Shown: one piece after another, positions 9,216-61,515 of the stretch
How positions within the stretch are numbered: the stretch's first letter is position 1
How the letters are laid out: each line of letters starts with the position of its first letter
Source of the DNA: Alentia gelatinosa
Lineage: Eukaryota; Annelida; Polychaeta; Phyllodocida; Polynoidae
Assembly (NCBI GenBank): GCA_950022655.1
Contig: OX465587.1
Location: 24,431,716-24,495,715 of the forward strand
Length of the DNA: 64,000 bases
Reading direction: 5' to 3'
Position numbers and translations under genes: made by a program
Notes under the pieces: model-generated
What the model was told of the DNA's origin: nothing
Database searches by the model: none
The model's input: only the letters and a program-made list of their open reading frames with translations

Positions 9216-10662
9216 CACATACATATATGTGTGTATATGTAAGGGGAGGGTTGTATAATATGTACATGAGCTATAGCAGAAACCATCCAATATGTTTACA
9301 TAGCACAGATACACAGTTGCCTGAATCGGTGATTTTAATGATTTGACAAGGGGAAATGTCTGCAGCCTTCTTTCCCCATCATCCATAGGCATTCCATTGT
9401 TTATTGGTAATTGAATCTCTCATTGTCAGTGGTGGAGGTGTTAGACTTTCAGCTCAGTTGTCTCAAACTGACACGACAACCAAATTAGGAGCACATACAA
9501 TTACCCTGTTTGTTTTGTGATGAAGTCCCATAAGGAACGGGCACATCCATTGGTCGGAAACAGAAGAACGGGGACTAACGAGGTGGGCCGACACTGCCAT
9601 CTATAAATACTGCCGTTTATAAATATCTTGAAAGCTGGATAACATTGGTTTCACTACCAAATAAAGATTAACAGTTGGATTATTCTCCATCATGATTGGC
9701 TATTAGTATCATGAATTCATTGTTTGAAATATTTTGTTGTAGATAACTCTTGTCCAACCATCTGAATTCACTGGCATCACTCTGATCCCATTTTATCATG
9801 CTACTGCTACTGTATGTCAGGTTACCTCCCATCTAAAGTAAGGACCGACAACTTAAAAAAAAATTCTAAATACCCATTTCAAACATTTTTTACATCATTT
9901 CCCTGTTTATCTGTTGGTTTTGTAAATACTCTACTAATAAAGCACATAACTAAACTTTCTTGAAATTATGTAGCTATAATATGTTATCATATGTCTGACA
10001 CCAAATTCCCATTCGCGTTCTACACCTCTTGAATTTTGTACATCACTTGAAATGATTACATGCGCCACATTGCCAGCGAATGGTTGAAGGAATGATAGCT
10101 GAAGTCTCAAAATAGGACTCCTCTGTCTTGAGACTAGGACGGGGCCCTGGGGAAGGTCATGTCTATGGTGGCAGACAGATTTAGTCTTGCCATACAACGG
10201 TAGATTGACAGCTTCATTAGTTCTGCCCATATAGCTTAGAGCCTGATAGCGGTAAGGGCCACGACTTATGTGACTCAGTGTGTCACACACGACAGTCACA
10301 CCACTCTGACGGCACCCTGAACAAACGGTAAATGCCAATCTGCAGGCGTCGGCCTCAGTCTCAGGTCATGTCACCAGCTCGCCACAAAATCCACCGTTAT
10401 AATTGATGGACTTGGATAGAACACCGATCATTTAACTTATTCTTTCACGAGGACATTTTGATGGAGATTTAAACTGAACCTGCGCGTCGTTTACTGGAAG
10501 AATGAGCGGGTCACAAGTAACGGGCATTTTCTAATTATTGTCTAATGACCTTGTATTCTTTCCCAAGGTAAAATGAATATGTTCAGTCTGACAGAAGAAT
10601 GAAACCAATATTGCAGTTAAACAGTTTTTGCTCAAGTCATTTCTGTACATGTATAATTACAC
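9212..10662. other. Retroelement 5' flank, no supported gene
   Basis: AT-rich flank of the LTR element. A 134-codon open stretch on the minus strand (9934-10338) is the longest frame, but it starts at TTG and has no recognised domain or clear splice signals. It could be an exon or chance. ACAC at 10659-10662 is a candidate target-site duplicate for the retroelement. Confidence 0.4.
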
Positions 10663-10748
10663 AATTGTAATGACTTATGTAGTAATCTTACGTTTAAGAT
10701 TGTTTAGTTATTGTACTTGGTAAAATGGACCCGACCCGCCCCCCGGGT

Positions 10749-10829
10749 CACGTGTCAGGCGGCCCTGGCCTGAACCTCTATCTACCGTTGATTGGTGCTA
10801 GGTTCCAGCCAATCAGTAGTCTTTATATG
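10749..10829 (+). promoter_or_regulatory. LTR U3 promoter elements
   Basis: An E-box (CACGTG), two CCAAT boxes in opposite orientation and a TATA-like TTTATATG are spaced as in an RNA polymerase II promoter. Transcription would start about 30 bp downstream, near 10855. The same set is present at offset +7483 in the 3' LTR, where it could drive flanking DNA. This is motif-based inference. Confidence 0.55.
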
Positions 10830-10885
10830 TTATCAACGTTCATAATCTGTAATCGACACGAATATATGGAAGTGCTGTATCGGAA

Positions 10886-10891
10886 ATTAAA
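10886..10891 (+). terminator. LTR poly(A) signal ATTAAA
   Basis: ATTAAA, the commonest variant of AATAAA, is followed within about 30 bp by a GT-rich 'cttgtgttccc'. The functional copy for element transcripts would be the equivalent at 18369-18374 in the 3' LTR. Confidence 0.45.
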
Positions 10892-10943
10892 CAGACTTGT
10901 ACTGCCGCTTGTGTTCCCGACTCTACCTTGAAACATTACAATT

Positions 10944-10961
10944 TGGCGATCTTGCCAGGAT
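10944..10961 (+). other. Primer-binding site
   Basis: TGGCGATCTTGCCAGGAT starts 3 bp inside the canonical LTR end. TGG is the complement of a tRNA CCA end. The inverse complement resembles the 3' end of an arginine tRNA (T-stem CCTGG, discriminator G), as used by some insect gypsy-group elements. The tRNA assignment is tentative, from memory of tRNA ends. Confidence 0.7.
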
Positions 10962-10984
10962 CTGACCACGGGAACAATAGCAGC

Positions 10985-12139
10985 ATGGCGGACGAACATG
11001 CCAAGAAAAAGTTAGATCTATCAGTGGTAGAAGCTACACGAAGACGATTGTATGAATTCACGAAAAACATACCTGTGCTGGATGGAACGGACCGATCGAA
11101 ACTGCGTCAATGGGTGGACGCACTAGACTACGCAAAACGAAACATCAACCCGGGAGAGGCAATAATTCTCGAAGCAGTCTCCGCCAAAGCAAAAGACAAC
11201 TTAGCAAGGTATGTGGACCAGATCAAGGATGAATTTGCTAATAGAGTACCACCCAAGGCTCTCACGTGGACGGACCTGAAGGAAGCTATTCTGAAGCAGT
11301 TCATGAGTGCAGCAGAAATAAAACTTCTGCGACGTAAGGTGGAGAAGGCTCAACAAGGATCTTACGAGACTCTTCGGGAATATAGTGACCGTTTCATTGG
11401 AGATGTGCATCGCGCCTATAGTCCGACGGAGCGTAAAACTGAGTACCTATCGGGACAAATACGAGACTTCTTCATTGTGGGTATTCATAACACGCAACTT
11501 CGACACATGGTGGGTGGACAACGGCCCATCACATTGGAAGAGGCTATTGAAGGGGCTATACATAATGTGACTGTTTTAGATCTCGAGACCAATGATTTAG
11601 AACAGGCCGCTCTTCCTCCACCCCCTCCAGTAGAGGAATCTCCTCACTACAAGGAATTTTCCGGACTATTAAAATCCATGGAGAGACAGATGCAAGCCTT
11701 GGTAGTGGCGCTACGTCCTAACAAAAAAGACAATTCTGTGGAAGTAGCTGCTAATGATTCCAACATGGGCACAACGGCCTCCTCTCAGCGGTGTCTTTCT
11801 ACTTCGGAATCATCGTCCCAAGGGTGTTCCTCGTGCCACAAGTCGGGATGTGGCTCGCTCCCGAATCACACCGAAGCACAAGGTAACAACATCTTCTACA
11901 TGAGTTCGGCTCCTCCTCCCCAACGAGGCCGGGGACGGGGACGCGGTCGTGGAAGGGGCGGTAGGACCATGAACGTTGCCTCTAACATACAATGCTATAC
12001 ATGTTGGGGATATGGCCATATCGCAGTCAATTGTCCAAGTCCCTTATCTAATAATCAAGCATCAAACGGAAACGGGGGATGGAATGACAACCCTCAGTCC
12101 GGACCAGGCAACAACTCCTACTACCCTCAGGGAAACTGA
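10985..12139 (+). CDS. gag: Gag polyprotein
   Basis: Encodes a 384-residue structural protein that would assemble particles and package the element RNA. I chose the ATG at 10985 (just after the primer-binding site) because the upstream extension of the frame begins only at a TTG inside the LTR. Residues about 1-210 are charged and helical, with a retrotransposon-Gag-type layout (Trp-containing helices, 'LRxW', 'FxxxF'). A proline run and a Ser/Cys-rich linker follow, then an Arg-Gly-rich RNA-binding stretch at about 312-330. A single CCHC zinc knuckle (C-X2-C-X4-H-X4-C) lies at about 337-350. The last codons are CAG GGA AAC followed by TGA, a -1 frameshift signal into pol. No breaks are visible. 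I see no myristoylation signal at the N terminus. Confidence 0.95.
   Translation: MADEHAKKKLDLSVVEATRRRLYEFTKNIPVLDGTDRSKLRQWVDALDYAKRNINPGEAIILEAVSAKAKDNLARYVDQIKDEFANRVPPKALTWTDLKEAILKQFMSAAEIKLLRRKVEKAQQGSYETLREYSDRFIGDVHRAYSPTERKTEYLSGQIRDFFIVGIHNTQLRHMVGGQRPITLEEAIEGAIHNVTVLDLETNDLEQAALPPPPPVEESPHYKEFSGLLKSMERQMQALVVALRPNKKDNSVEVAANDSNMGTTASSQRCLSTSESSSQGCSSCHKSGCGSLPNHTEAQGNNIFYMSSAPPPQRGRGRGRGRGRGGRTMNVASNIQCYTCWGYGHIAVNCPSPLSNNQASNGNGGWNDNPQSGPGNNSYYPQGN
12130..12136 (+). promoter_or_regulatory. -1 ribosomal frameshift heptamer GGGAAAC
   Basis: In the gag frame the sequence reads G GGA AAC and then TGA, an exact X XXY YYZ slippery heptamer; GGGAAAC is a known retroviral -1 site. The pol frame is -1 relative to gag and is open upstream only to 12088, so any frameshift must occur within about 50 nt, and this is the site. 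A small GC stem (12141-12145 with 12153-12157) begins 4 nt downstream and may be the stimulatory structure; folding was not computed. Confidence 0.85.
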
Positions 12140-15100
12140 TGGCCGCGTCGGACGGTCGAGTATGTGTGGTTGTGCAACAGGGCAGCACTACTTTGCATAC
12201 GCTGATTGATTCTGGCGCGTCGCGTTCCTTGATTACCGTGGCAAAATGGGAGGAGATTTGTAAGGAAAATGATAGACCTCCAGTTTTGCGAAGTGGTGTT
12301 CCGTTGCGATCTTTATCGGGTCATGTGTTGCAAACAAGAGGCGTGGCTACCATCAATGTACTAAGCAAGGAAATATTCGTCTATATATGCGATCAATTAC
12401 AACATGATCTACTATTGGGTATTGACTCCATGGAAATACTGGACTGCCAGTTGGACTGTGTGAAACAGCAAGTTAAACTGGCTAACCATATCTTTGACTA
12501 TGGAAACTGTGAGGACACCAACCGGGAATTGGCTGGGGTTCATACCGAAGAGGACAATTGGAAACAACAATTTCCTAGTGTGTTTGCCGCAGACAATTTT
12601 CCCTTAAAAACGGCACCGGAGGTACAAATGCACATAGACGTAGGGCAGCATGCGCCTATTCGACAACGACCCTACCGAATCCCATTAACTCTCAGAACAA
12701 AAGTGAAGGATGAAATAGACAAATTATTGAGAGCAGGCGTAATAACACCTAGCGCTAGTCCCTGGTCGTCTCCATTGTTAATAATACCCAAAACAAATGG
12801 AGGTATACGATGCTGTTTAGATTTTCGCAAGATTAACATGTTGTGCAAAAAGGATGCACATCCACTACCTCACATCCAAGATATCTTCGACGCACTAGCA
12901 GGGGCAGCAGTTTTCTCAGTGATAGATCTAAAAAATGCGTATTATCAAATTGAGTTGACACCAGAAAGTCGCGAAGTCACTGCGTTCACAACACCTGGAG
13001 GATTGTATGAATTTCGGAGAATGCCTCAGGGCTACTGCAATAGTCCCGCCACATGGCAGCGCTATATCAATACAGTGCTGGCTCCGTTGTTGAACAAAAC
13101 GGTACTAGTCTACTTGGACGACATCATTGTCTACTCCCGAGATGAGAAACAGCACTCGCAGCACGTGCATGAGTTGTTCACACTGCTGGAGCAGCACAGA
13201 CTCACAGTTAACCCGGAAAAGTGCAAGTTCCGTCAGTCGGAGGTGCGTTTACTGGGATACATCGTAGGATGCTCAGGGGTCAGGGCAGATCCCAGGAAGG
13301 TGGAAGCCATCCAAGAGATGGCACCACCCTCGAATGTCAAAGAAGTACAAAGATTCTTAGGCTTAGCGGGTTATTACAGACAATGCATCCCGGGGTTTTC
13401 GGCCCTAGCTTCGCCGTTGGTAGAGCTCACAAGAAAAGGACAAAACTTTGACTGGTCGCCCGAAAGACAAATGGCATGGATCCGTCTACGAAACGCACTC
13501 ACATCCGATCAGGTGATGGCCTTTCCTGAGGTAAACAAGCCGTACAGGCTATACGTGGACGCTAGCATGAACTGTGTCGGAGGGATCTTGACACAAAATG
13601 ATGACACCGGTACAGAAAGACCAGTACAATACGTCTCAAAACAATTGAATGACAGTCAGCGCAAATGGGCAACCATTGAAAAAGAGGCTTATGCGGTGGT
13701 CTACGCCCTACAAAAGTTACGCCCTTATTTGCAAGGAGCAACCTTTACAGTCGTAACTGATCACAAGCCTTTAAGATCGATTTTTCAGCAAGAAATGAAG
13801 AATTCTAAACTTCAGAGATGGGCGGTATTACTCGCGGATTACGGGGCGCCGATAGAATATCGAAAAGGTGCCCACAATGTGCGAGCAGACATGCTGTCTA
13901 GACTCCCTCCAAACAACAAAGAAGTCAGGTCCGACGCTACAGTGTTGGAAGTAGCAGGTGTTGAACACGTCCCATCTTACGACACAGCCACTATCATGGT
14001 AAAAGGAGTAAAGATGTTATCAACAACTCCTTCGGTGGTAGACGTTTCAGATGTTTCAGACACAAACTGGGATGATCCTTTTGTAGACAAAAAAGAGTTG
14101 GTAAGGTGTCAAGCAGAATTACCACAATACCGTTTAGGTTTGAAAGATGAAGAAGAGTACATGATTCAAGAAGGGGTGCTGTATACGTTACGAACACTCA
14201 AAGGACTCAGTCACCCACGCATAGTGATACCTCCAGCCCTGGTCAAACAAACGGTACAATTGATACATCAAGACATAGGACATCAAGGAATGCAAAAGAC
14301 ATATGATCGTCTGGCCACACGCTACAAATGGCCAAACATGAAGAAAGACGTTCATCACTTGATTCTAAATTGCCCGCTATGTCTACTGTACAAACCAATC
14401 AAAACATACCCGCCGGCCAGACCCATGATACCTCCAACAGCTTCAAATGAAGTCATGGGAATTGACCTTATTGGCCCATTACCAACAAGCCATAAAGGTA
14501 ATCGATATGCCGTGGTAGCCATTGACCACTGCACAGGCTGGGTGGAGGTGGTACCAATCCCCGACAAACGTGCCATGCAAGTAGTCGCCTTCTTCAAAGA
14601 TGTATGGATACCAAGACACGGAAGTCCAAAAACAGTGGTCTCAGATAGAGGAACTGAGTTTCTGAATGCCGCCATAAGACAAATGTGTCATACACACAAA
14701 ATTGAATGGAGGTATTCAACGGCTTACCATCCGACCACTAATGCGAAAACAGAAAGGTTCAACAAAACGTTGAAATCTATCCTAACTAAATTGGTGGAAG
14801 GACATTCTGAAGAATGGGAACGCCATTTAGGAACTGCGCTGTGGGCATATCGATCTACCGTGTCAACAGTTACGGGATTTTCTCCCTATTTCTTACATCA
14901 TGGAAGGGAGCCTGTGGATCCAGAAGGGAAACACAAGATACCATGCGGGGAGGAACTGAATGTGCTAAAACATCAAATTGAACTAAGAGAAGCGGCCATA
15001 AAGGAAGCAAAGAAGAAAACAGAAATCCTACAAAGAAGAAATAAAGAACGTTTGGACAAAAGAGATAGGGCTCCAAAGTATTCTGTCGGCCAAGAGGTGT

Positions 15101-16164
15101 TACTTCAATCAATAAAACCGACCACCTTCCAACCGACATATCTGCATGGTTACATCGTAACGCATGAGAAAGACAACATCGTACAATTAGAACACTACAC
15201 GGGCAAGTCACTGCGCGTCAATGTCGATCGTTTGAGGGTTGTACCTCCCGGGATTACCTATCTGCCGGTGACATGTAATCAACCAAAGGCGGATAAACCA
15301 TCAAACGTTCGCACCCCGGCACTCGTGACACGAGACAAGTCAATGACAGATATCGCCAAGACAGTGTATGAAGCCTTACCTCCCGGCTGTATACAAAGGG
15401 ATTGTTACGTGCCAAAGGAGATAAGGCCGAGGTCGGTAAAATCAACAAACGACAAATCCTCAAACAACAAAACCCTAAAACGACGACAGACACGCCAACG
15501 GCAATGGGAACGTCTCAAACGATGTCATCAAAGTGAAGTACCAATACACGACTTATCGGGACAGCTGTCTGACATGCCCTCCGAATACACAACAGTAATC
15601 TCCACCGCAGACGTCAGCGAAGAATTATCTGACCACCTGATAGAGACTGTAAGGACGCCATCGGCGGAATCAACGATAACGGAACAAACCCGTACAACTA
15701 CAAGTGCTCCACAAACATCGTCGGGGTCCAGTTCTGACGGCGGAGGAAATCATCAAAGGATAAGGCGGTGGTCGGGGACCTCAGGTGCGAGACAGGAAGA
15801 TAACGCCCATGACATGTGTAGTGGTAACAGTAATCCCAGGCACTCTACCCCCCCGTCGTCGACGGTCCACCGGTCATCAGAGGGGGATGACAACGAGGGG
15901 AACACACAAAGTGACAAGGAGGTGACATGTGTCGACGGAAACAAAGAGATGACCGACACAGAGACCGATAGCAGTGAAGAGTCCAGACAAGGGGAAACAG
16001 ACTTAAAAAGGCCGGTCAATCAGAGTCGGTCCACTGTGTCTCCACCATCGAGCGTAAGCACACTACGAACACGTGCTGACTTCAGACGAGCATCGCGTCT
16101 ACCTGCAAGCACTGTAAATTACAAAGAATGGTCGTCCACATCCGAAGAGGAGATCAGTGCGTAA
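12139..16164 (+). CDS. pol: Pol polyprotein (PR-RT-RNase H-integrase)
   Basis: 1341 residues from the ATG at 12139, which overlaps the gag stop by one base (TGATG). It is probably made as Gag-Pol by -1 frameshift, alternatively by reinitiation. The aspartic protease has DSGAS at 24-28 and LLLGID at 91-96. The reverse transcriptase covers about 170-370 with YLDD at 325-328. RNase H shows D474, E514/E516 and D541. The integrase has an HHCC zinc finger (H710, H715, C745, C748) and the catalytic triad D776, D836, E872 with D-X35-E spacing. An SH3-like integrase C-terminal region lies at about 977-1040. The final 300 residues are a Ser/Thr/Asp-rich, low-complexity tail, long for this family. All catalytic residues are present and the frame is unbroken. 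The 3' end overlaps env by 37 nt. Confidence 0.97.
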   Translation: MAASDGRVCVVVQQGSTTLHTLIDSGASRSLITVAKWEEICKENDRPPVLRSGVPLRSLSGHVLQTRGVATINVLSKEIFVYICDQLQHDLLLGIDSMEILDCQLDCVKQQVKLANHIFDYGNCEDTNRELAGVHTEEDNWKQQFPSVFAADNFPLKTAPEVQMHIDVGQHAPIRQRPYRIPLTLRTKVKDEIDKLLRAGVITPSASPWSSPLLIIPKTNGGIRCCLDFRKINMLCKKDAHPLPHIQDIFDALAGAAVFSVIDLKNAYYQIELTPESREVTAFTTPGGLYEFRRMPQGYCNSPATWQRYINTVLAPLLNKTVLVYLDDIIVYSRDEKQHSQHVHELFTLLEQHRLTVNPEKCKFRQSEVRLLGYIVGCSGVRADPRKVEAIQEMAPPSNVKEVQRFLGLAGYYRQCIPGFSALASPLVELTRKGQNFDWSPERQMAWIRLRNALTSDQVMAFPEVNKPYRLYVDASMNCVGGILTQNDDTGTERPVQYVSKQLNDSQRKWATIEKEAYAVVYALQKLRPYLQGATFTVVTDHKPLRSIFQQEMKNSKLQRWAVLLADYGAPIEYRKGAHNVRADMLSRLPPNNKEVRSDATVLEVAGVEHVPSYDTATIMVKGVKMLSTTPSVVDVSDVSDTNWDDPFVDKKELVRCQAELPQYRLGLKDEEEYMIQEGVLYTLRTLKGLSHPRIVIPPALVKQTVQLIHQDIGHQGMQKTYDRLATRYKWPNMKKDVHHLILNCPLCLLYKPIKTYPPARPMIPPTASNEVMGIDLIGPLPTSHKGNRYAVVAIDHCTGWVEVVPIPDKRAMQVVAFFKDVWIPRHGSPKTVVSDRGTEFLNAAIRQMCHTHKIEWRYSTAYHPTTNAKTERFNKTLKSILTKLVEGHSEEWERHLGTALWAYRSTVSTVTGFSPYFLHHGREPVDPEGKHKIPCGEELNVLKHQIELREAAIKEAKKKTEILQRRNKERLDKRDRAPKYSVGQEVLLQSIKPTTFQPTYLHGYIVTHEKDNIVQLEHYTGKSLRVNVDRLRVVPPGITYLPVTCNQPKADKPSNVRTPALVTRDKSMTDIAKTVYEALPPGCIQRDCYVPKEIRPRSVKSTNDKSSNNKTLKRRQTRQRQWERLKRCHQSEVPIHDLSGQLSDMPSEYTTVISTADVSEELSDHLIETVRTPSAESTITEQTRTTTSAPQTSSGSSSDGGGNHQRIRRWSGTSGARQEDNAHDMCSGNSNPRHSTPPSSTVHRSSEGDDNEGNTQSDKEVTCVDGNKEMTDTETDSSEESRQGETDLKRPVNQSRSTVSPPSSVSTLRTRADFRRASRLPASTVNYKEWSSTSEEEISA

Positions 16165-17972
16165 AAACATGGACAGGAATAATATGGATTTTCCTATACC
16201 TCGTTGTGACGGTAATCTCGTCTCCAATATTACATAAAGATGGAGTGATGGTTACACTGGACGGCGAAACTAGGGTGGTATCGGCGTTATGGACCATCAT
16301 AGTCACCGTGGAATCACCCCAAAAACCGGACTTAACTAATTTGGTGAATCAGGTAAATGAATACCGCAACATGTCATCCACCCGAATCGATGAGACAACA
16401 GTGGCCATGTGGGATTTACGTCTGCAACACATCACACATACCATACAAGCAGGTGACCAGCAAATTCAGGAGGAAATTGGTGATTCTCGTCGGCAAAAAC
16501 GGGGTCTACGCTCGGTTTTAGCAGAATTGGCCAAAGCATGCATTGGAGTAGCGACGGAAGCAGATGTCAGAACACTATCCACACAAGTAAACGCGTTAGG
16601 TTCTTCTATAAAAAGACTACAACAACATGATGTCCAATTATTGTCGATGTTGAATTTAACCCAACAATACAGCGTCGCGAACCGAAGAGGGCTATTGGAA
16701 CTACAAGAACACGGTCGAAGACTACAGATAATAGTGGATCGCGTCAACAAACAGGTACAAGACCACATTTACGCTATACAAACCTTACAAATTCGGCAAT
16801 TGGTAGACCAAGTCTTAACTATTATGGAATTGTTGGTCAGCCAGTTTGCTAGCTCTGTAGACCTGTTCCACCAGCGTTTCATGCAACTAGAGAAAGGGAG
16901 CCTATCCAGAGACATACTGCGCCCTGCGGAACTCAAACAGATACTACGAGAGTTAGAGAAACAGGGACATGCGGTGTTGCCCATAGGATGGTATTATCGA
17001 CATGTTCAAATAGATTCTCTGTGGGCTCACAACGGACAAATTGTGTACAAGGTACTATTACCCGCAGTAACGAGAGACATCTACTTAACATATGAATTAC
17101 AGTACTTTCCGGTGAGATGGAGTGACACCTTCACACGGACCATTGTAGGAAAAGAACGAGTGGCTGTATCGTCCGGATCACGATCATCGTTTATCCCCTC
17201 CAATGATGTGTGCATGGGACAAGGACCGATGCTGTGTTTCCCAGCTGTACAATATAAACGACCATCATGTGAAGTACAATTGGTATCAGGCAACGGAGCG
17301 GATTCATGCAACATGACTGTTAAACCGACCCCTAGGGAGAAATCATTGGTTTTCCGCAATCTGCGCCATCCTTTTGTCATCACCATAGTACCACTGCAGC
17401 CCATAACCTTGACCCATCGCTGTCTTGGAAGTACAGCTCGACAAGAGACGGTATCGGTAATCACCCAAATAACGTTGAATGAGAAATGCGGACTGGAAAC
17501 GGACGACTGGGATATAAAAGGAGTAAACGTGGGATTCAGACGAGTAGAAATGAAGCCCGCAGTACCCATAACACTGCCCGCCTTGCAAATAGTATGGCCT
17601 CATCAGATGGACAAAGGCTTTCAGGAGGATGTCATGAAAATGGGTGAACTGACTGTGCCTATCAAAGACTTAGCGTTGTGGGATTTTCCCGGGTTGGATT
17701 CTCACGCTGAACATCTACCGCTGATCATTTCAGGACTGTCAATTGGTGTAGGAGACTTGTTACTTATTATGATTATAACGGTGGCAATTTGTGTGTATGT
17801 AAAACGTCGTTTTGTTTTTAAAAAATTGAAGACTACCATTATCGAAAGCGGTGATTCAAACAAAGACTCTAGGATCAACAATGCGGATAGTGTACATCTT
17901 CCGATTCTGCCTAGTGACACTGTGGTAACCACCTTGTATTCTGATGCCCGTGCTGCAACATCTTTAGCTTAG
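16128..17972 (+). CDS. env: Envelope (F-like fusion) glycoprotein
   Basis: Encodes 614 residues. An N-terminal hydrophobic stretch (about 16-31) is a signal peptide. The basic site RRQKR at 121-125 suits furin-type cleavage. It is followed at once by GLRSVLAELAKACIGVAT, which resembles an internal fusion peptide, and by a helical, leucine-rich region (about 145-300) likely to form a coiled coil. Three N-X-S/T glycosylation motifs are visible. A membrane span at about 532-558 precedes a roughly 56-residue basic tail. A short N-terminal subunit and a long C-terminal membrane-anchored subunit match the F proteins of baculoviruses and errantivirus Env. The start ATG lies inside the end of pol, so a spliced mRNA is expected; no splice sites were assigned. 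No disruption is seen. The family call is from architecture, not alignment. Confidence 0.88.
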   Translation: MVVHIRRGDQCVKTWTGIIWIFLYLVVTVISSPILHKDGVMVTLDGETRVVSALWTIIVTVESPQKPDLTNLVNQVNEYRNMSSTRIDETTVAMWDLRLQHITHTIQAGDQQIQEEIGDSRRQKRGLRSVLAELAKACIGVATEADVRTLSTQVNALGSSIKRLQQHDVQLLSMLNLTQQYSVANRRGLLELQEHGRRLQIIVDRVNKQVQDHIYAIQTLQIRQLVDQVLTIMELLVSQFASSVDLFHQRFMQLEKGSLSRDILRPAELKQILRELEKQGHAVLPIGWYYRHVQIDSLWAHNGQIVYKVLLPAVTRDIYLTYELQYFPVRWSDTFTRTIVGKERVAVSSGSRSSFIPSNDVCMGQGPMLCFPAVQYKRPSCEVQLVSGNGADSCNMTVKPTPREKSLVFRNLRHPFVITIVPLQPITLTHRCLGSTARQETVSVITQITLNEKCGLETDDWDIKGVNVGFRRVEMKPAVPITLPALQIVWPHQMDKGFQEDVMKMGELTVPIKDLALWDFPGLDSHAEHLPLIISGLSIGVGDLLLIMIITVAICVYVKRRFVFKKLKTTIIESGDSNKDSRINNADSVHLPILPSDTVVTTLYSDARAATSLA

Positions 17973-18148
17973 ACTACGATACTTATCTTGGTTACTATTG
18001 TCAGATTCTCATAAGTGAAGGAATCGACGTAGCTTCTTAAAGCCTACGACTGAGTAAAATGTATGTAACTATTTTTTGAAATTAGATTTAGCCGATTGTG
18101 TTTAACTTCTGTTCAATTGATTGTATGTTTCTTGGAAGAGGGAGGAAT
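17973..18148 (+). other. 3' untranslated region with polypurine tract
   Basis: This short non-coding leader to the 3' LTR ends in a purine-only run, GGAAGAGGGAGGAA (18134-18147), one base before the LTR TG. The run is the expected primer for plus-strand DNA synthesis. The region is otherwise AT-rich, with no frame. Confidence 0.85.
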
Positions 18149-18423
18149 TGTAATGACTTATGTAGTAATCTTACGTTTAAGATTGTTTAGTTATTGTACT
18201 TGGTAAAATGGACCCGACCCGCCCCCCGGGTCACGTGTCAGGCGGCCCTGGCCTGAACCTCTATCTACCGTTGATTGGTGCTAGGTTCCAGCCAATCAGT
18301 AGTCTTTATATGTTATCAACGTTCATAATCTGTAATCGACACGAATATATGGAAGTGCTGTATCGGAAATTAAACAGACTTGTACTGCCGCTTGTGTTCC
18401 CGACTCTACCTTGAAACATTACA
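18149..18423 (+). repeat. 3' LTR
   Basis: This 275-bp copy of the 5' LTR has no difference that I could find and the same TGTAATG...CATTACA ends. ATTAAA at 18369-18374 would direct polyadenylation of element transcripts. Its U3 E-box, CCAAT boxes and TATA face out into the 3' flank. Confidence 0.97.
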
Positions 18424-18720
18424 CAGGCAACTACACTGCTTAGTCATTATCCTACCCCTAATATAAAATCCCATAGGCTTAACATTGAATTTCCGTATGC
18501 CACACTGACTGGCATACGGAGTTTTATAAACCACTAGTGGCATACAGAATTGTTATCACGTAATATTTCAAAATTGAGGAGATGGAGTATAGGATAAAAT
18601 CAAAACCTGGAGTATAGGATAAAATCAAAACCTGATAACTGGAGTTTTGGCTCCGGACTTCACTCGGCTTCGCCTCGTGAAATCACTTTGCCAAACTCCA
18701 GTTATGGCATACAGTGGCCA
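18424..18720. repeat. Foldback/hairpin-rich repeat beside the 3' LTR
   Basis: This segment contains a perfect hairpin (TCCGTATGCCA at 18492-18502 with its complement at 18510-18520, 7-nt loop). It also has a direct 25-bp duplication (18584-18608 and 18609-18633). A longer foldback pairs ATAACTGGAGTTTTGGC (18635-18651) with GCCAAACTCCAGTTAT (18690-18705) around a GGCTTCGCC loop. The phrase 'ggcatacag' recurs at both sides. It is probably a foldback element, of a family not recognised. Confidence 0.6.
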
Positions 18721-21700: not shown

Positions 21701-24700
21701 CTTTAAAACCTCTTGATGCGCTACAATGCATAATGACAAAAATCATACACAATTGCGTTCCTCTTTTACTTACCTAAGAGGAACATCGGCGTGCATTGTA
21801 ATTGGTTTTTAGATATATCGCAAGGTCTATTGTAGACGATTTAGTGGAGGCTGGGCCTAAAGTACAATGGCAATATTTCTGTATAGTTTTCCTATGATAC
21901 ATGTTACATTTGGAATAATGTGCTGTAATAGCTGTGGGGTAGGCAATAGTATTGTCCCTTGCAAAACACACCTAAAGAAACATGTCAGCCATCAATGAAC
22001 GTTTTTAAAAAGGGCGTTGGTTCGACTCTCTCAAAAGCACCGAACAAAGTAGGTATCGATAATTTATGAGGTACACACCAAACGTTGTCTAAAATGTTTT
22101 CCAAAACAAACTCACTTAACTGTTCCTGTCAGGCGGCGCTGCAGCCAAAGTTGTGCCTGTTAAAAGCAGGACCAATACATTCCCAGCCCGAGTGACAAAC
22201 TTCTCTGGAGATTAAGCGCCAGGGGTCCTTATCGGATGAGCCTTCTGCACGATTCTGATGCGAGCAGCTCTCATAGTGTGGAGCAGCTCCTGTCTGCTAC
22301 ATTCTGGGGGCATTTCCTCCGTGTCGACAGGCGATGTATATGGACGGCGCCCACTATACTTAAGGACGTCCCCAGCAGCACGCTACACTAACTTATATTT
22401 CCGGGAAGCCACTGCTACATACCAGGGACTTCATAGTGCCTCTTCTTTAAAAAAAACATCTATTGGTTGACGCACCCCTTTTGCTCTCTCTGGGAGATCA
22501 GGGGGTACATTAAGGTAATTGACAGATCACACTTGGCTTATATATAGTCGGCCCTGAGCCCACATGAAGGATTGTGTGCGGGTGGGGCCGTATGTGTGCG
22601 TGTGCGCAAAGGGTGGGTTTGCTTCTGCGGGCGGACCAGACAAATCAAAACAAACGATGCACACCACGACTCAAGTTGAATACTAAACTTGAGCGACGTC
22701 CGGAGGGCCCTCTCTTCTCGTACTTAGCTCTCGGCGCCCGGAAGGTCTTTAGGGCTTTATGAAAGGGCCCTGAACGCGCCCTGTCAGTGTAGGGGGGAGG
22801 GCGCGCACTGACGTGTGTGTGTGGGTGTGTAGGAGGTCTTAGCGTCCTCAATGGACTCGCAGGGGGCTGTCATATCTCGGCTGGTCTCCATGAAGGGAAA
22901 GGGAGGAGAGAGCGGGAGGGATGGAGGAGAGGGAAGGGTGGTTCTCGTGTCTCCAAGCCGGCGACGTTACTTTCGGCGAGGCAACTTGTGCATGCAGAGG
23001 GCACTACACAAACAAGTAGCCTTTTAGAAGGTCATGCAAGGGTGTGGCGCGTGGGTGGTGTATATATTGTGAATAATGTACGGAACGGCCGCAGCTTTTA
23101 ATGCACGCATAGTGCAAATGACTCCCATATATAGTACCAGCTAATGGGACAAGACAACATAAATATAGCGCTCTCTGTATTTCTACTCTATGAATACGGA
23201 CGTGTATTTTGTAAATGCCGTCTAAATGTTGGCAGTTCACTTCGGATATATTTATGGCTTTTTACATCGCAGACTATTCACGTACATGTGTTTGAGATTA
23301 ACTTGGCATAAAATAACACATTTTGTAGGCAGTTATATCCTGGGGATGTATGTGGAATTTAAATTCACAACCTGCATAATCTCAATAATGAGACTGGCCT
23401 GTAACACTACATATTGCATCTAAGAAATACACACATAGATATGATTATTTAGTATAGAGGCAATGTAGGGGCATCGTTGGACCAACGATACAGGTGTAGT
23501 CATTAGTGTAATTCCGGAGTGACACAATTATGTGCTCTACTTTGATAATTCATGTGCATTTATCATCAGCCTGAGTCTGCATGATGTACACATAATGCGC
23601 TTAACGTACATTTCGCTGTCTCACTCACCTACATAGTTAATGTAACCATCCCATCAGTTTACATACCACACACAGACAGCTCCATAGAGATGGAGTATCC
23701 AACACACGTCTCATTAGTTAAGTCACCTCTGTGTATTTTTCTTGGCCTGCTTTAGATAACCAGTGTGTTTGCAAAGCATACGAGCCAGAAGCCGGGGAGA
23801 TCCAAGCATCCCTGCCACATGTGAATCAAAGCTGACCACTTCGTACCCCATGTACACCCCACCCACTTTACAGTGAAGGTTCTGTTGATATGGCCATTCG
23901 TAAATAGATCCATATCAAAAGTGTGTTTTCCTTGATTTCCTGAGATCAGATAAACAGGATCAAATTACACGCATCTGCCGTCAATATGTTAAGAAAAGTA
24001 AGTAAGGACGTAACCTTCTTGAGATATTTGATCATCATTGTAGACCGCTAATAGTAAAATGGCGAGTCATATCCAATAAGAAAATTGTGGCTTTGTAACT
24101 ACCTTTAGCTGCGTAATCAATTAACTTCATTTAATGACCCAGGTCACTTTCATAGTTATGTAAAACTAGGAGCAAATGGTATGCTCATCATTGATGAATG
24201 AGCGTGGAATTATAGATAAATAACAATTAAAGGTTTGATTTATATTCAGTCTATAGGTATGGGTCACCTTCTGTAACCCAGTTGCACCCAGTCAACTTAC
24301 CATTTCTACAACTCCCTGACTAGGATCCAAAATATATCAAGCATCTGTTGGTCAATGAGGTATTATAGTCTCTGGTGACTGGTCATTGTCAGCTGGGCAC
24401 GCCTCTAAGACTAGGACACTAGCCCTCTGCTCTTTTCCCAATGTCACAGTGCTAGCACGAAGATGGTTAAGGGTAAACTTTTGCAGCAAGCACGAAGTAC
24501 ATGTGACCACCCTCACCTATAACAGAGTATATGAGCATGTTGCCTACCCTCAATAAAAGGGATGTGGAGTCTAAACCAAAACATATATCCAATGATGAAT
24601 ATGTTCGTGTCCAGAGTGAAAACAATACACTTGGATAATAAAATTATAACAGAGAGAGTAGAATACGTATCCGCTCAAACCCACTCCAGCTACGTAAGAA

Positions 24701-29924: not shown

Positions 29925-32070
29925 TTAGGGATGGGACAGAAAGGATGGGTCACTGAGTGGAGTGAGTGTAGAGAGAGGCGGGGCTTGCAGCTGGATGGGA
30001 CAGAGAAGATGGGTTATTGAGTGGAGTAAGTGTAGACAGCGGTTGGGCTTGCAGCTGCATGGGACAGAGAGGATGGGTCGCTGAGTGGAGTGAGTATAGA
30101 GAGGGGCGGGGCTTGCAGTGGGATGGGACATAAAGAATTGGTCGCTGAGTGGAGTGAGGGTAGACAGGGATGGGGCTTGCAGCGGGATGGAACAAAAGGG
30201 ATAGTTCACTTAGTAGAGTTATGGTAGAGAGGGGTTGGGCTTGCAGCTGGATGGAATAGAGAGGATGGGTCACAGAGTGGAGGGAGTGTAGAGAGGGGCA
30301 GCGCTTGTGGCGGGATGAAACATAAAGGATGGGTCGCTGAGTGGAGAGAGTGTAGAAAGGGATAGGGCTTGCAGTGGTATGGGATATAGAAGATGGTTCA
30401 CCGACTTGAGTGAGTGTAGAGAGAGGCGGGGCTTGCGGTGGGATGGGACAGAGAGGATTATTGAGTGGAGCAAGTGTAGACAGCGGTTGGGCTTGCAGCT
30501 GGATGGAACAGAGAGGATGGGTCGCTGAGTGGAGTGAGTATAGAGAGGGGCGGGGCTTGCAGCTGGATGGGACAGAGAGGATAGGTCACTGAGTGGAGTG
30601 AGTGTAGAGAGGGGCGGGGCTTGCAGCTGGATGGGACAGAGAGAGTGGGAGGCTGAGCGGAGTGAGTCTAGAGAGGGACGGGGCTTACGGCGGGATGGGA
30701 CAGAGAGAGTGGGAGGCTGAGTGGAGTGAGTGTATAGAGGGGCGGGGCTTGCGGCGGGATGGGACAGAGAGAGTGGGAGGCTGAGCGGAGTGAGTGTAGA
30801 GAGGGGCGGGGCTTACGGCGGGATGGGACAGAGAGAGTGGGAGGCTGAGCGGAGTGAGTGTAGAGAGGGGCGGGGCTTACGGCGGGATGGGACAGAGAGA
30901 GTGGGAGGCTGAGCGGAGTGAGTGTAGAGAGGGGCGGAGCTTACGGCGGGATGGGACAGAGAGAGTGGGAGGCTGAGTGGAGTGAGTGTATAGAGGGGCG
31001 GGGCTTGCGGCGGGATGGGACAGAGAGAGTGGGAGGCTGAGTGGAGTGAGTGTAGAGAGGGTCGGGGCTTACGGCGGGATGGGACAGAGAGAGTGGGAGG
31101 CTGAGTGGAGTGAGTGTAGAGAGGGTCGGGGCTTACGGCGGGATGGGACAGAGAGAGTGGGAGGCTGAGTGGAGTAAGTGTAGAGAGGGTCGGGGCTTAC
31201 GGCGGGATGGGACAGAGAGAGTGGGAGGCTGAGTGGAGTGAGTGTAGAGAGGGTCGGGGCTTACGGCGGGATGGGACAGAGAGAGTGGGAGGCTGAGCGG
31301 AGTGAGTGTAGCGAGGGGCGGGGCTAGCAGCTGGATGGAATAGAGAGGATGGGTCACAGAGTGGAGGGAGTGTAGAGAGGGGCAGCGCTTGTGGCGGGAT
31401 GAAACATAAAGGATGGGTCGCTGAGTGGAGAGAGTGTAGAAAGGGATAGGGCTTGCAGTGGTATGGGATATAGAAGATGGTTCACTGACTTGAGTGAGTG
31501 TAGAGAGAGGCAGGGCTTGCGGTGGGATGGGACAGAGAGAGTGGGAGGCTGAGTGGAGTGAGTGTAGAGAGGGTCGGGGCTTACGGCGGGATGGGACAGA
31601 GAGAGTGGGAGGCTGAGTGGAGTGAGTGTAGAGAGGGTCGGGGCTTGCAGCGGTATGGGACAGAGAAGATGGTTCACTGAGTGGAGTGAGTGTAGAGAGG
31701 GGCGGGGCTTGCAGCGGGATCGGACAGAGAGAGTGGGTCGCTGAGCGGAGTGAGTGTAGAGAGGGGCGGGGCTTGTGGCGGGATGGGACAGAGAGAGTGG
31801 GAGGCTGAGTGGAGTGAGTGTAGAGAGGGTCGGGGCTTACGGCGGGATGGGACAGAGAGAGTGGGAGGCTGAGTGGAGTGAGTGTAGAGAGGGTCGGGGC
31901 TTGCAGCGGTATGGGACAGAGAAGATGGTTCACTGAGTGGAGTGAGTGTAGAGAGGGGCGGGGCTTGCAGCGGGATCGGACAGAGAGAGTGGGTCGCTGA
32001 GCGGAGTGAGTGTATCGAGAGGCGGGGCTTGCGGCGGGATGGGACAGAGAGAGTGGGAGGCTGAGCGGAC
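29925..32070. repeat. 64-bp minisatellite with higher-order repeats
   Basis: About 33 head-to-tail units of 64 bp, each containing 'gggatgggacagagag', 'gaggctgagtggagtgagtg' and a GGGGCGGGGCTT GC-box. Early units (to 30420) are diverged and the middle units nearly identical. A roughly 200-bp variant block at 30247 recurs at 31331 (offset 1084 bp, about 17 units), and another at 31631 recurs at 31887 (offset 256 bp, exactly four units). This indicates recent unequal exchange of multi-unit blocks. Long frames across it (up to 384 residues on the minus strand) are Pro/Ser/Leu repeats forced by composition and are not called as genes. Confidence 0.95.
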
Positions 32071-43916: not shown

Positions 43917-44231
43917 TTGCTTGTTTGTTTGGTTTGATTTAACGCCCAGTCAACCATTATAGGTCCTTACCATACTTTCTCACGGTTGTTTTACACCACG
44001 AGTGTGGTGATGGAATCTATCTAATTAATTCAGGCAGAAATCTCACCCCTACACATTTACCGAGGTGAGAGTTCTTTCACTTCCAACGCCACATAGACAT
44101 GGTATGAGAAGGATTGGCCTTTGATATAGTAGTAAATCTACCACTGCTGGGGTGGGACTTGAACCCACAAAGTCCTACAACTTTGGGGTTACAAGTCCGG
44201 TACTCTAACCACTGAGCTAACTCCCCACCCC
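43917..44231 (-). mobile_element. Full-length tRNA-derived SINE
   Basis: A 315-bp SINE on the minus strand. The head (44231 down to about 44140) is tRNA-like. It has box A TTAGCTCAGTGG (44209-44220), an anticodon loop CTTGTAA (44189-44195, anticodon TGT, threonine-like) and box B GGGTTCAAGTCCC (44154-44166). The acceptor and anticodon stems no longer pair well, so it is not a working tRNA. The body is unrelated and ends in GGGCGTTAAATCAAACCAAA followed by CAAACAAGCAA, resembling tails of molluscan SINEs (from memory). Perfect 12-bp duplications CTGTAAAGTGGA flank it, proving retroposition by a LINE machinery and a fairly recent date. Confidence 0.92.
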
Positions 44232-50335: not shown

Positions 50336-51300
50336 AGCCCCAGACCTGTCCAGCAGCAGACTGCCCGCACTGCCAATACCTCCCCATATGCAGCCACCCC
50401 ACCCAGACCTGTCCACCACTAGGCTGCCCGCACTGCCCCCTCCCTCCCCATATGCAGCCACCCCACCCCAGACCTGTCCACCATCAGACTGCCCGCACTG
50501 CCCCCTCCCTCCCCATATGCAGCCACCCCACCCCAGACCTGTCTACCACCAGACTGCCCGCACTGCCCCCTCCCTCCCCATATACAGCCACCCCACCCCA
50601 GACCTGTCTACCACCAGACTGCCCGCACTGCCCCCTCCCTCCCCATATGCAGCCACCCCAACCCAGACCTGTCCACCACCAGGATGCCCACATTGCCCCC
50701 TACCTCCCCATATGCAGCCACCCCACCCCAGACCTGTCCACCAGCAGGCTGCCCGCACTGCCCCCTCCCTCCCCATATGCAGCCACCCCACCCCAGACCT
50801 GTCCACCACTAGGGTGCCTGCACTGCCCCCTCCCTCCCCATATGCAGCCACCCCACCCCAGACCTGTCCACCAGCAGGCTGCCCGCACTGCCCCCTCCCT
50901 CCCCATATGCAGCCACCCCACCCCAGACCTGTCCACCACCAGACTGCCCGCACTGCCCCCTACCTCCCCATATGCAGCCACGCCACCCCAGACCTGTCCA
51001 CCAGCAGGCTGCCTGCACTGCCCGCTCCCTCCTCATATGCAGCCACCCCACCCCAGACCTGACCACCACCAGGATGCCCGCACTGCCCCCTCCCTCCCCA
51101 TATGCAGTCACCCCACTCCAGACCTGTCCACCACTAGACTGCCCGCACTGCCCCCTCCCTCCCCATATGCCGCCACCCCACCCCAGACCTGTCCACCATC
51201 AGACTGCCCGCACTGCCCCCTCCCTCCCCATATGCAGCCACCCCACCCCAGACCTGACCACCACCAGGATGCCCGCACTGCCTCCCCCACCCTCCCCGTA
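50336..51300. repeat. 65-bp C-rich minisatellite
   Basis: About 15 units with 65-bp spacing (for example CCCCATATGC at 50446, 50511 and 50576). Each unit reads 'ccccatatgcagccacccca', 'ccccagacctgtccacca' and 'gcccgcactgccccctccct'. The G-strand of each unit has GGGGAGGGAGGGGG followed by GCGGG, a four-run G-quadruplex motif. All six frames stay open for long stretches (up to 353 residues), which is a composition effect; none is called as a gene. Confidence 0.95.
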
Positions 51301-51725
51301 TGTAACCACCCCGCTGAAGAAATTATCTGGAACCGTGGTGACAAACAAAACTAAAAATGAATAAAACTGAAATGGAGCACAACCATCACCACACAGAACA
51401 TGACGTGAGGGAAAGAGGGAGGGAGGTAGAGGAATCAGGGATGGGACTGATTTCCACATCTGACAAACTGTAGGCGAGTCCACGCCTTGAACCATCTATT
51501 TCTCCCCTCCTGTATTTCTGCTTAGATGACAGGACTATCTCTGCGACGGGTTGCTCGTTCGGGGACCACATTCTAACTGCGAACATAGTCCTAGTCGTTT
51601 CTGGATATATTTCATAGCAATTGTCCTATTTATCATCCATATGCATAGCATATGATAAACTCAAGGACATTGGTGATCCCTGACAAGGCAACTCTACTAG
51701 TTATATATAAAACCATGTATGTGTT

Positions 51726-60059: not shown

Positions 60060-61515
60060 CGGGCAGTGGTGGTATTGAGAGGGGTGTCACGACAGTGGTG
60101 GTATTGAGAGGGGTGTCATGTCAGTGGTGGTATTGAGAGTGGTGTCATGTCAGTGGTGGTATTGAGAGGGGTGTCATGTCAGTGGTGGTATTGAGAGGGG
60201 TGTCATGTCAGTGGTGGTATTGAGAGGGGTGTCATGTCGGTGGTGGTATTGAGAGTGGTGTCATGTCAGTGGTGGTATTGAGAGGGGTGTCATGTCAGTG
60301 GTGGTATTGAGAGGGGTGTCATGTCAGTGGTGGTATTGAGAGGGGTGTCATGTCAGAGGTGGTATTGAGAGGGGCATCATGTCAGTGGTGGTATTTAGAG
60401 AGGTGTCATGTCAGTGGTGGTATTGAGAGGGGCGTCATGTCAGTGGTGGTATTGAGAGGGGTGTCATGTCAGTGGTGGTATTGAGAGTGGTGTCATGTCA
60501 GTGGTGGTATTGAGAGTGGTGTCATGTCAGTGGTGGTATTGAGAGTGGTGTCATGTCAGTGGTGGTATTGAGAGTGGTGTCATGTCAGTGGTGGTATTGA
60601 GAGGGGTGTCATGGCAGTGGTGGTATTGAGAGGGGTGTCATGTCAGTGGTGGTATTGAGAGGGGTGTCATGTCAGAGGTGGTATTGAGAGGGGCGTCATG
60701 TCAGTGGTGGTATTTAGAGAGGTGTCATGTCAGTGGTGGTATTGAGAGGGGCGTCATGTCAGTGGTGGTATTGAGAGGGGTGTCATGTCAGTGGTGGTAT
60801 TGAGAGTGGTGTCATGTCAGTGGTGGTATTGAGAGTGGTGTCATGTCAGTGGTGGTATTGAGAGTGGTGTCATGTCAGTGGTGGTATTGAGAGTGGTGTC
60901 ATGTCAGTGGTGGTATTGAGAGGGGTGTCATGTCAGTGGTGGTATTGAGAGGGGTGTCATGTCAGTGGTGGTATTGAGAGGGGTGTCATGTCAGTGGTGG
61001 TATTGAGAGGGGTGTCATGTCAGTGGTGGTATTGAGAGGGGTGTCATGTCAGTGGTGGTATTGAGAGGGGTGTCATGTCAGTGGTGGTATTGAGAGGGGT
61101 GTCATGTCAGTGGTGGTATTGAGAGGGGTGTCATGTCAGTGGTGGTATTGAGATGGGTGTCATGTCAGTGGTGGTATAGAAAGTGGTGTCATGTCAGTGA
61201 TGGTATTGCGATGGGGTCATGTCAGTGGCGGGGCTGACAAGGGATGGTATTGGGAGTATTATCATGTTAGTGATGGTTTTGATAGTGGTGTCATGTTAGT
61301 TGTAGTATTGACAATAGTGTCATGTCAGTGGTAGTATTGACAGTGGTGCCATGTCAGTCATTGTATTGTCTGGTGATGTCATGTCAGTCATAGTGTTGTC
61401 CAGTGGTGTCATGTCAGTGGTGGCATAAACGTTGGTGTCATGTCAGTGGTAGTATTGACAGTGGTGTCAGTAGTGATATTGGCAATGGCGTCAGTAGTGG
61501 CATTGACAGTGGTAT
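60060..61515. repeat. 29-bp minisatellite with 11-unit higher-order repeat
   Basis: About 38 nearly perfect 29-bp units ('agtggtggtattgagagggg' plus 'tgtcatgtc') run to about 61190, then decay over 300 bp into diverged units. Variant units (GTCAGAGGTGG followed by a 'tatttagagagg' unit) at 60352 recur at 60671, an offset of 319 bp or exactly 11 units. This shows duplication of an 11-unit block. No coding frame. Confidence 0.95.

What the first reader, a model, noticed from the sequence alone, without database searches (positions are those of the whole stretch)
10666..18423. Intact, very young envelope-bearing LTR retroelement
Seen: paired 275-bp LTRs with no difference found, three unbroken genes, all catalytic motifs present, primer-binding site and polypurine tract in place. 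Established: env-bearing Ty3/gypsy elements (errantiviruses) can behave as retroviruses. Inference: this copy may be transcriptionally and even horizontally active in its host, which looks like a marine invertebrate; such elements are much less studied outside insects.
Basis: partly seen in the sequence, partly recalled or inferred. Interest (0 to 1): 0.88.

Follow-up and report, generated by a model that had tools for sequence, protein, structure and literature searches.

The report
Young envelope-bearing retroelement in annelid swarm
The window holds one unbroken, retrovirus-like jumping element with an envelope-type gene, in the genome of what is likely a segmented worm that has 258 sites with the same predicted replication-primer sequence; it is predicted to spread like a retrovirus, but no activity was measured.

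Summary
In detail: identical 275-bp LTRs, open gag, pol and env, primer site and purine tract. It is a Ty3/gypsy retroelement whose env belongs to a baculovirus-F-like family. In the 1.23-Gb assembly no second full-length copy of its family was found, only a 99% solo LTR with a 4-bp target duplication. The window copy has no such duplication.

It sits in a swarm. An env search scored 72 loci (of 1,098 candidates), 69 without stops; the nearest are 51-55% identical. The 18-base primer site occurs exactly 258 times. Of 20 env loci examined at their ends, 19 have an LTR pair, 14 of them identical. LTR families are discrete (27 among 41 sites).

Gag-pol is most likely made by -1 frameshifting: GGGAAAC before the gag stop (17 of 19 related junction pieces), then a covarying RNA hairpin; the ATG that seems to start pol is in none of 16 aligned relatives.

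The mitochondrial contig looks annelid, so the host is likely an annelid. Env-bearing gypsy elements are already reported across metazoans, so this is a new member of a known kind. Transcription, particles and infection were not tested.

The parts
10666..10940 (+). 5' LTR, TGTAATG...CATTACA, 275 bp; CCAAT boxes, TATA-like TTTATAT at 10822 and ATTAAA at 10886 read by eye
   Evidence: identical to 3' LTR; boundaries confirmed by a solo LTR of the same family with target duplication
10944..10961 (+). predicted primer-binding site TGGCGATCTTGCCAGGAT, 3 nt downstream of the LTR; the tRNA was not identified
   Evidence: present in 20 of 20 related 5' pieces, 17 exact and 3 with one base changed; 258 exact sites in the genome
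10985..12139 (+). gag, 384 aa from ATG, CCHC zinc knuckle near 11990-12040, stop TGA at 12137-12139
12130..12136 (+). slippery heptamer GGGAAAC in phase for a -1 shift, directly before the gag stop
   Evidence: same in 17 of 19 related junction pieces
12145..12218 (+). RNA hairpin, 8 nt downstream of the heptamer, predicted frameshift stimulator
12139..16164 (+). [quoted passage not shown]
16128..17972 (+). env, 614 aa: furin-type site RQKR|G at 16491-16502, six Cys invariant in the family; signal peptide, fusion-peptide-like stretch and C-terminal membrane anchor read by eye
18136..18145 (+). polypurine tract AAGAGGGAGG, 3 nt before the 3' LTR
18149..18423 (+). 3' LTR, 275 bp
10662..10665 (.). 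4 bp left of the element (CAAT); does not match the 4 bp right of it
18424..18427 (.). 4 bp right of the element (CAGG); no target-site duplication

Best explanation
The window holds a structurally complete Ty3/gypsy retroelement with identical LTRs and an envelope-type gene, one of many related elements in a likely annelid genome, and it likely replicates as an errantivirus-type endogenous retrovirus. Shown from sequence: LTRs, open gag, pol and env, a purine tract, a primer-type site shared by related copies, an in-phase GGGAAAC before the gag stop, and behind it a predicted hairpin supported by covariation. Inferred steps: Pol II would transcribe it from the LTR; Gag is translated, and a fraction of ribosomes would slip -1 at GGGAAAC to make Gag-Pol; reverse transcription would be primed by a host tRNA at the conserved 18-base site; integrase would insert the DNA with 4-bp duplications, as seen at related copies; Env, probably from a spliced RNA, would be cleaved at RQKR and act as an F-type fusion protein that lets particles pass between cells. 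The missing target duplication of this copy is best read as a later recombination or an aberrant insertion end.
For: LTR identity 275/275; three open genes and Pfam domains; best PDB match for pol is the Ty3 polyprotein (E 1.1e-91). Env family: 69 of 72 scored genomic env loci have no stop, nearest about 51-55% identical; two related genomic envs (of 9 scanned singly) and one outside protein (32% identical to the window env) pass the Baculo_F cut-off; furin-type site and six Cys invariant in 19 aligned envs. Frameshift: heptamer in 17 of 19 related junction pieces; hairpin covariation 0.246 against 0.158 in shuffles, 0 of 500 reaching it, and at most 0.101 in slid controls; the codons at the base of the stem are fixed to one synonym in 17 of 17 while a neighbouring Ala codon is free. 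Swarm youth: 14 of 19 LTR pairs 100% identical and 15 of 19 with exact 4-bp duplications; 258 exact primer sites against 0 for the reversed pattern.
Against: No transcript, small RNA or particle data. The window env is below the Baculo_F cut-off on its own (15.9 against 24.1 bits), and five of nine genomic envs scanned singly show no Baculo_F match at E<=0.01. No target duplication. Only one full-length copy of this family was found, so recent amplification is shown for the swarm, not for this family. The AlphaFold model of env is useless (pLDDT 37), so the F-type fold is not shown structurally. No named errantivirus reference sequences were available for the pol tree. LTR pairs were examined for 20 of the 72 scored env loci, taken from the best matches, five of them (L006-L010) one family. 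Frameshift: two of the five measures of the pair count do not exceed shuffles (169 and 309 of 500), shuffles ignore relatedness, the window sequence alone folds only modestly better than its shuffles, and two codons in the predicted loop (CAG, GGC) are also nearly fixed (16 of 17 each), so fixed codons are not confined to the stem.
Confidence: 0.86

Rival explanations
1. Pol is not made by frameshifting but by termination-reinitiation at the TGATG overlap of the gag stop and the pol ATG.
For: In the window gag ends with TGA and pol has an ATG sharing its A; one outside relative also begins with an in-frame M at a matching place (P0006). Two of the 19 junction pieces examined showed no heptamer.
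Against: The ATG occurs in 1 of the 17 aligned junctions (the window only), while GGGAAAC is in all 17 of them and the hairpin covaries. The alignment was made only from junctions that have the heptamer. The two pieces without one (L058, L072) may simply miss the junction; this was not checked.
Confidence: 0.05
2. The copy is a recombination product: its two ends come from different insertions of the family, or one end was rearranged, so LTR identity does not date an insertion at this site.
For: No 4-bp target duplication (CAAT against CAGG) whereas 15 of 19 related pairs have one next to TG...CA.
Against: Only one other close LTR of the family was found and its duplication (CTGG) fits neither flank; the 5' flank is single-copy so no empty site could be seen; an unusual end (left AAT kept, right ACA lost) would give a shared ACAC (read), so an aberrant insertion is possible.
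Confidence: 0.4
3. Env has been kept for a host use or as a passenger, and the element spreads only inside cells.
For: No measured infectivity; insect elements that reverted to intracellular life are known (PMC12992720, passages). One close env pair (L027 against L028) differs by a single nonsynonymous change.
Against: Env is open, and the furin-type site and six Cys are invariant in 19 aligned members (fusion-peptide-like stretch and membrane anchor judged by eye). Three other close env pairs have dN below dS (0.0058 against 0.0238, 0.0029 against 0.0121, 0.0044 against 0.0097; 9 to 18 differences each).
Confidence: 0.12

Closest known systems
Envelope-carrying gypsy elements of metazoans ('metazoan errantiviruses', Chary and Hayashi 2025, eLife 108449; not held, seen only as cited in passages of PMC13172572 and PMC12859917)
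   Same: env-carrying gypsy elements, reported widely across animal phyla
   Different: Membership among their 289 representatives could not be checked; nothing about annelids or a frameshift signal was seen in the passages read
Insect errantiviruses (gypsy, ZAM, idefix, Tirant)
   Same: gag-pol-env order, F-type env with furin site, fusion peptide and membrane anchor (motifs as listed in PMC12992720, passages)
   Different: primer site unlike the ones I recall for insect elements; window env only 15.9 bits to Baculo_F; insect members not available for a tree
Ty3/gypsy clades described in annelids and molluscs (C-clade, CsRN1, MolGy and others; PMC8556966 passages)
   Same: host group (if the host is an annelid) and pol type
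   Different: no envelope gene noted in the passages read; lineage of the window pol among these clades not tested
PEG10 and retroviral G_GGA_AAC frameshift sites (PMC5009743 and PMC7212762 passages)
   Same: same heptamer; PEG10 also has a downstream RNA stimulator
   Different: mechanistic likeness only, no claim of descent; a pseudoknot is reported for PEG10, here a hairpin is predicted and a pseudoknot was not tested

Membership tests
Metaviridae (Ty3/gypsy) | pol order protease, RT, RNase H, integrase | tested here: met
   protease only by its DSGA motif (Pfam 13.9 bits, below cut-off)
Metaviridae (Ty3/gypsy) | RT nearest to Ty3 among named solved structures | tested here: met
   Ty3-G polyprotein E 1.1e-91, an RT/RNase H entry without source name (4ol8) 1.6e-76, next a Gag-Pol polyprotein 1.5e-46
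Metaviridae (Ty3/gypsy) | paired LTRs, tRNA-type primer site, purine tract, short target duplication | tested here: inconclusive
   LTRs and purine tract present, primer site present but its tRNA not identified; duplication absent at this copy, present at the family's solo LTR and 15 of 19 relatives
Errantivirus-type (env-bearing gypsy) | env related to baculovirus F protein | tested here: inconclusive
   window env 15.9 bits, cut-off 24.1; 9 of 19 aligned family members match at E<=0.01; L006, L033 and P0004 pass the cut-off
Errantivirus-type (env-bearing gypsy) | furin site followed by fusion peptide, conserved Cys, membrane anchor | tested here: met
   furin-type site and six Cys invariant in 19 of 19, the other two judged by eye
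Errantivirus-type (env-bearing gypsy) | pol clusters with known errantiviruses | not tested
   only unnamed homologues available; nearest P0005-P0007 form a supported clade with it
Errantivirus-type (env-bearing gypsy) | infectious particles | not testable with these tools
   no expression or particle data
-1 programmed frameshift gag-pol | in-phase X XXY YYZ heptamer in the gag-pol overlap | tested here: met
-1 programmed frameshift gag-pol | conserved RNA structure a few nt downstream | tested here: met
   8-nt spacer; single-sequence fold only modestly better than shuffles (z -0.19, -2.20 and -1.39 for 61, 81 and 121 nt)
-1 programmed frameshift gag-pol | measured frameshift product | not testable with these tools
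   needs a reporter or proteomics

The most novel reading that the evidence does not exclude
One annelid genome is under continuing invasion by a swarm of many distinct, infectious errantivirus-type retroviruses: dozens of env-bearing families that differ by up to about half of their Env residues, each a recent burst of one to a few near-identical copies, sharing one primer site and one frameshift signal. The window element would be a fresh single arrival of such a lineage.
Probability: 0.3. Interest if true: 0.78.

Novelty: new member of a known kind. Interest (0 to 1): 0.5.

Why it matters
Env-bearing gypsy elements are the invertebrate counterpart of endogenous retroviruses, and to my knowledge their biology is known mostly from flies. 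Here one genome offers many independent families side by side, most of those examined with open env and identical LTRs, so that questions such as whether env is kept by selection, how often such elements reinvade, and how gag-pol ratios are set become testable by comparison. The covarying frameshift hairpin, shared by families whose Env proteins are only about half identical, is a concrete, testable part.

Tried and rejected
Termination-reinitiation of pol was rejected on comparative grounds. AlphaFold of env with two rows gave pLDDT 37 and was not used; no fold search was run. Sequence searches of env against the PDB gave nothing that I trust. A second env search with alignment A1 found none, and a scan of IMG/VR with env confirmed no relative (4 pattern matches, none confirmed). 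No empty site could be found because the 5' flank is single-copy; the 3' flank search did not complete. The tRNA that would prime the element was not identified (pattern search did not complete; ARAGORN found no tRNA in the window). Chary and Hayashi's paper is not held. A search for papers with annelid, endogenous retrovirus, gypsy and env gene together returned 0; this says nothing about papers outside that library or other wordings. An intended unbiased sample of LTR pairs at 20 systematic primer sites stopped after the 5' pieces, so whether those sites carry env is not known.

In one search the 30 env loci gave 21 families at 90% identity; one of the 21 (L029) is an artefact because my script picked a pol ORF there, so the figure used is 20 families among 29 loci (L022 is in it as a shortened reading). 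In one search the mismatch list for L003 was made in the wrong orientation and is ignored; the BLAST line of the same call (99.3% over 275) is used.
Full report
What is there. The element runs from 10666 to 18423 (7,758 bp). Its LTRs, 10666-10940 and 18149-18423, are identical over 275 bp. The repeat program extends the match 3 bp to the left (AAT), which is the short spacer between the purine tract and the 3' LTR and happens also to precede the 5' LTR. LTR ends are TGTAATG...CATTACA. The boundaries are confirmed by a solo LTR of the same family on another contig (C7), which is 99.3% identical over 275 bp and flanked by the 4-bp duplication CTGG. Gag, pol and env are open. Pfam hits, with those below cut-off, are; the closest solved structure to pol by sequence is the Ty3 polyprotein.

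The 4 bp on the left (CAAT) and right (CAGG) of the element differ. Among 19 related LTR pairs, 15 have an exact 4-bp duplication next to TG...CA, 3 have a matching word set off by 3 nt on the left (my script allowed 0 to 8 nt), and 1 has none. So the window copy is unusual. The 5' flank is single-copy in the assembly, so no paralogous empty site was found to decide between recombination and an aberrant insertion. A shift of 3 nt at both ends would give a shared ACAC, which I regard as possible but unproved.

Copies of the family. In the 1.234-Gb, 101-contig assembly the LTR finds the two window LTRs, the solo LTR and one 70% partial match. A 1-kb pol piece finds itself at 100% and then nothing above 70% in 40 scored of 158 candidates. 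Hence the window copy is the only full-length member found; the tool warns that its counts are lower bounds. Zero differences in 275 bp bounds the LTR divergence at 1.1% (95%); without a mutation rate for this host no age in years is given.

The swarm. With the env protein, 72 loci were scored out of 1,098 candidates of the first look; 69 of the 72 have no stop and 3 have one TGA; listed identities other than the window's own are 48-55%. Among 29 env loci that I could read, 20 families separate at 90% identity (corrected for one artefact). The exact 18-base primer site occurs 258 times, its reversed control 0 times. I examined the ends of 20 env loci (L006-L021 and L023-L026 of the 30 loci given; the window's own, L022 and L027-L034 were not used; L006-L010 are one family). 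A primer site is present in 20 of 20 5' pieces and an LTR pair was found in 19 of 20; 14 of those 19 pairs are 100% identical, the others 99.6, 99.6, 99.2, 97.4 and 95.4%. These loci are the best env matches, so they lean towards intact copies. The last 230 nt before the primer site of 41 sites (these 20 loci, 20 sites taken as every fifth of the 100 listed, and the window) fall into 27 families, the same at the three cut-offs tried (80, 90 and 95%); the 20 systematic sites fall into 10 families, one of them with 7 of the 20. Their env content was not examined. This is a set of discrete families.

Env. In an alignment of 18 genomic envs and one outside protein (P0004, the only hit of a large protein search, 32% identical) the furin-type site R-x-(K/R)-R followed by G and six cysteines are invariant. 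Nine of the 19 match Pfam Baculo_F at E<=0.01. Of ten scanned singly, L006, L033 (26.0 bits each) and P0004 (32.2) pass the cut-off of 24.1, L011 and L012 fall below it, and five show no match; the window env itself has 15.9. The family is therefore F-type by some of its members, and the window protein by belonging to them. The structure prediction failed (pLDDT 37). A tree leaves the window env on a branch of its own, unresolved among the genomic envs.

Gag-pol expression. Gag ends CAG GGA AAC TGA. The heptamer G GGA AAC lies in phase for a -1 shift into pol. In 17 of 19 related junction pieces the same heptamer lies directly before the stop; the pieces for L012 and L032 showed none, and I did not check whether they hold the junction. 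The stop itself varies (TGA, TAG, TAA), and the ATG that seems to start pol in the window is found in none of the 16 other junctions aligned (of the 17 positive junctions L007 was left out as a copy of L006). The RNAalifold structure starts 8 nt after the heptamer, has 25 pairs, and 94.6% of its cells pair. Cells changed on both sides number 30 against 12.5 in shuffles (0 of 500 as high), covariation is 0.246 against 0.158 (0 of 500), and slid controls reach at most 0.101; two measures (pairs and types) do not exceed shuffles (169 and 309 of 500), and the tool warns that related sequences can beat shuffles without structure. The Ala GCG, Ser TCT and Gly GGC codons that form the base of the stem are fixed in 17 of 17, while the neighbouring Ala codon is free; but a Gln CAG and a Gly GGC in the predicted loop are also nearly fixed (16 of 17 each), which a simple hairpin does not explain and a loop contact or pseudoknot might (not tested). 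On the window sequence alone the fold is only modestly better than shuffles (z -2.20 at best). G_GGA_AAC is among the most shift-prone heptamers with mammalian ribosomes (PMC5009743, passages) and is the PEG10 site (PMC7212762, passage).

Pol. The nearest outside pols are P0005 (52%), P0006 and P0007 (50%), which form a clade with it in a 121-row tree (SH-aLRT 100). One position of the RT (MPQG) has Q in this element alone among 121 (106 F, 10 M, 4 Y); Q there is what I recall from retroviral RTs.

Host. Contig C101 (15,368 bp) looks like a mitochondrial genome: read with code 5 (the only code tried), long frames that I recognise by eye as nad1-nad3-nad2-cox1-cox2-cox3-nad6-cytb-atp6-nad5-nad4L-nad4 lie on one strand in that circular order, with large-subunit rRNA matches before nad1. 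Annelid mitochondrial genes are reported to lie all on one strand (PMC4505326, passages) and their protein gene order to be shared by most annelid families compared (PMC4866719, passages); the exact order is recalled, not read. Fifteen contigs, C1-C15, are of chromosome size (C15 is 38.6 Mb); the 19 later contigs whose length I saw are at most 205 kb. The host is therefore likely an annelid; whether marine is unknown.

Comparison with what is known. Env-carrying gypsy elements are reported to be widespread in metazoans, including cnidarians, ctenophores and tunicates (PMC12859917 and PMC13172572, passages). A survey of LTR elements in polychaetes has 0 occurrences of 'envelope' or 'errantivir' in its main text. 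The element is thus a new member of a known kind; the size and youth of the swarm in one likely annelid and its shared frameshift signal are what I would follow up.

Noticed in passing
window 12139-16164, RT residue 297: RT motif MPQG instead of the MPFG/LPFG usual in the aligned relatives; Q in 1 of 121, the window's own.
   Followed up: partly
A4 columns 49-54 (window 12178-12183): Gln CAG and Gly GGC codons in the predicted loop of the frameshift hairpin are fixed in 16 of 17 though unpaired; a loop contact or pseudoknot is possible.
   Followed up: no
L035, L038, L049 (5' pieces of L006, L009, L020): Target duplication separated from the 5' LTR by exactly 3 nt in 3 of 19 pairs, as if the U3 end had been integrated unprocessed.
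   Followed up: partly
L042: Two primer sites of the swarm in opposite orientation within 3.8 kb, suggesting one element inserted in or beside another.
   Followed up: no
window 29928-32069, 50338-51312, 60064-61228: Large minisatellites with units of 64, 65 and 29 bp.
   Followed up: no
window 44148-44226 (-): Rfam tRNA match of 33.6 bits that ARAGORN does not report; perhaps a tRNA-derived SINE.
   Followed up: no
window 24164-24451 and L003 470-620, 2882-3148: A dispersed repeat (75-79% identity) on both sides of the solo LTR and in the window.
   Followed up: no
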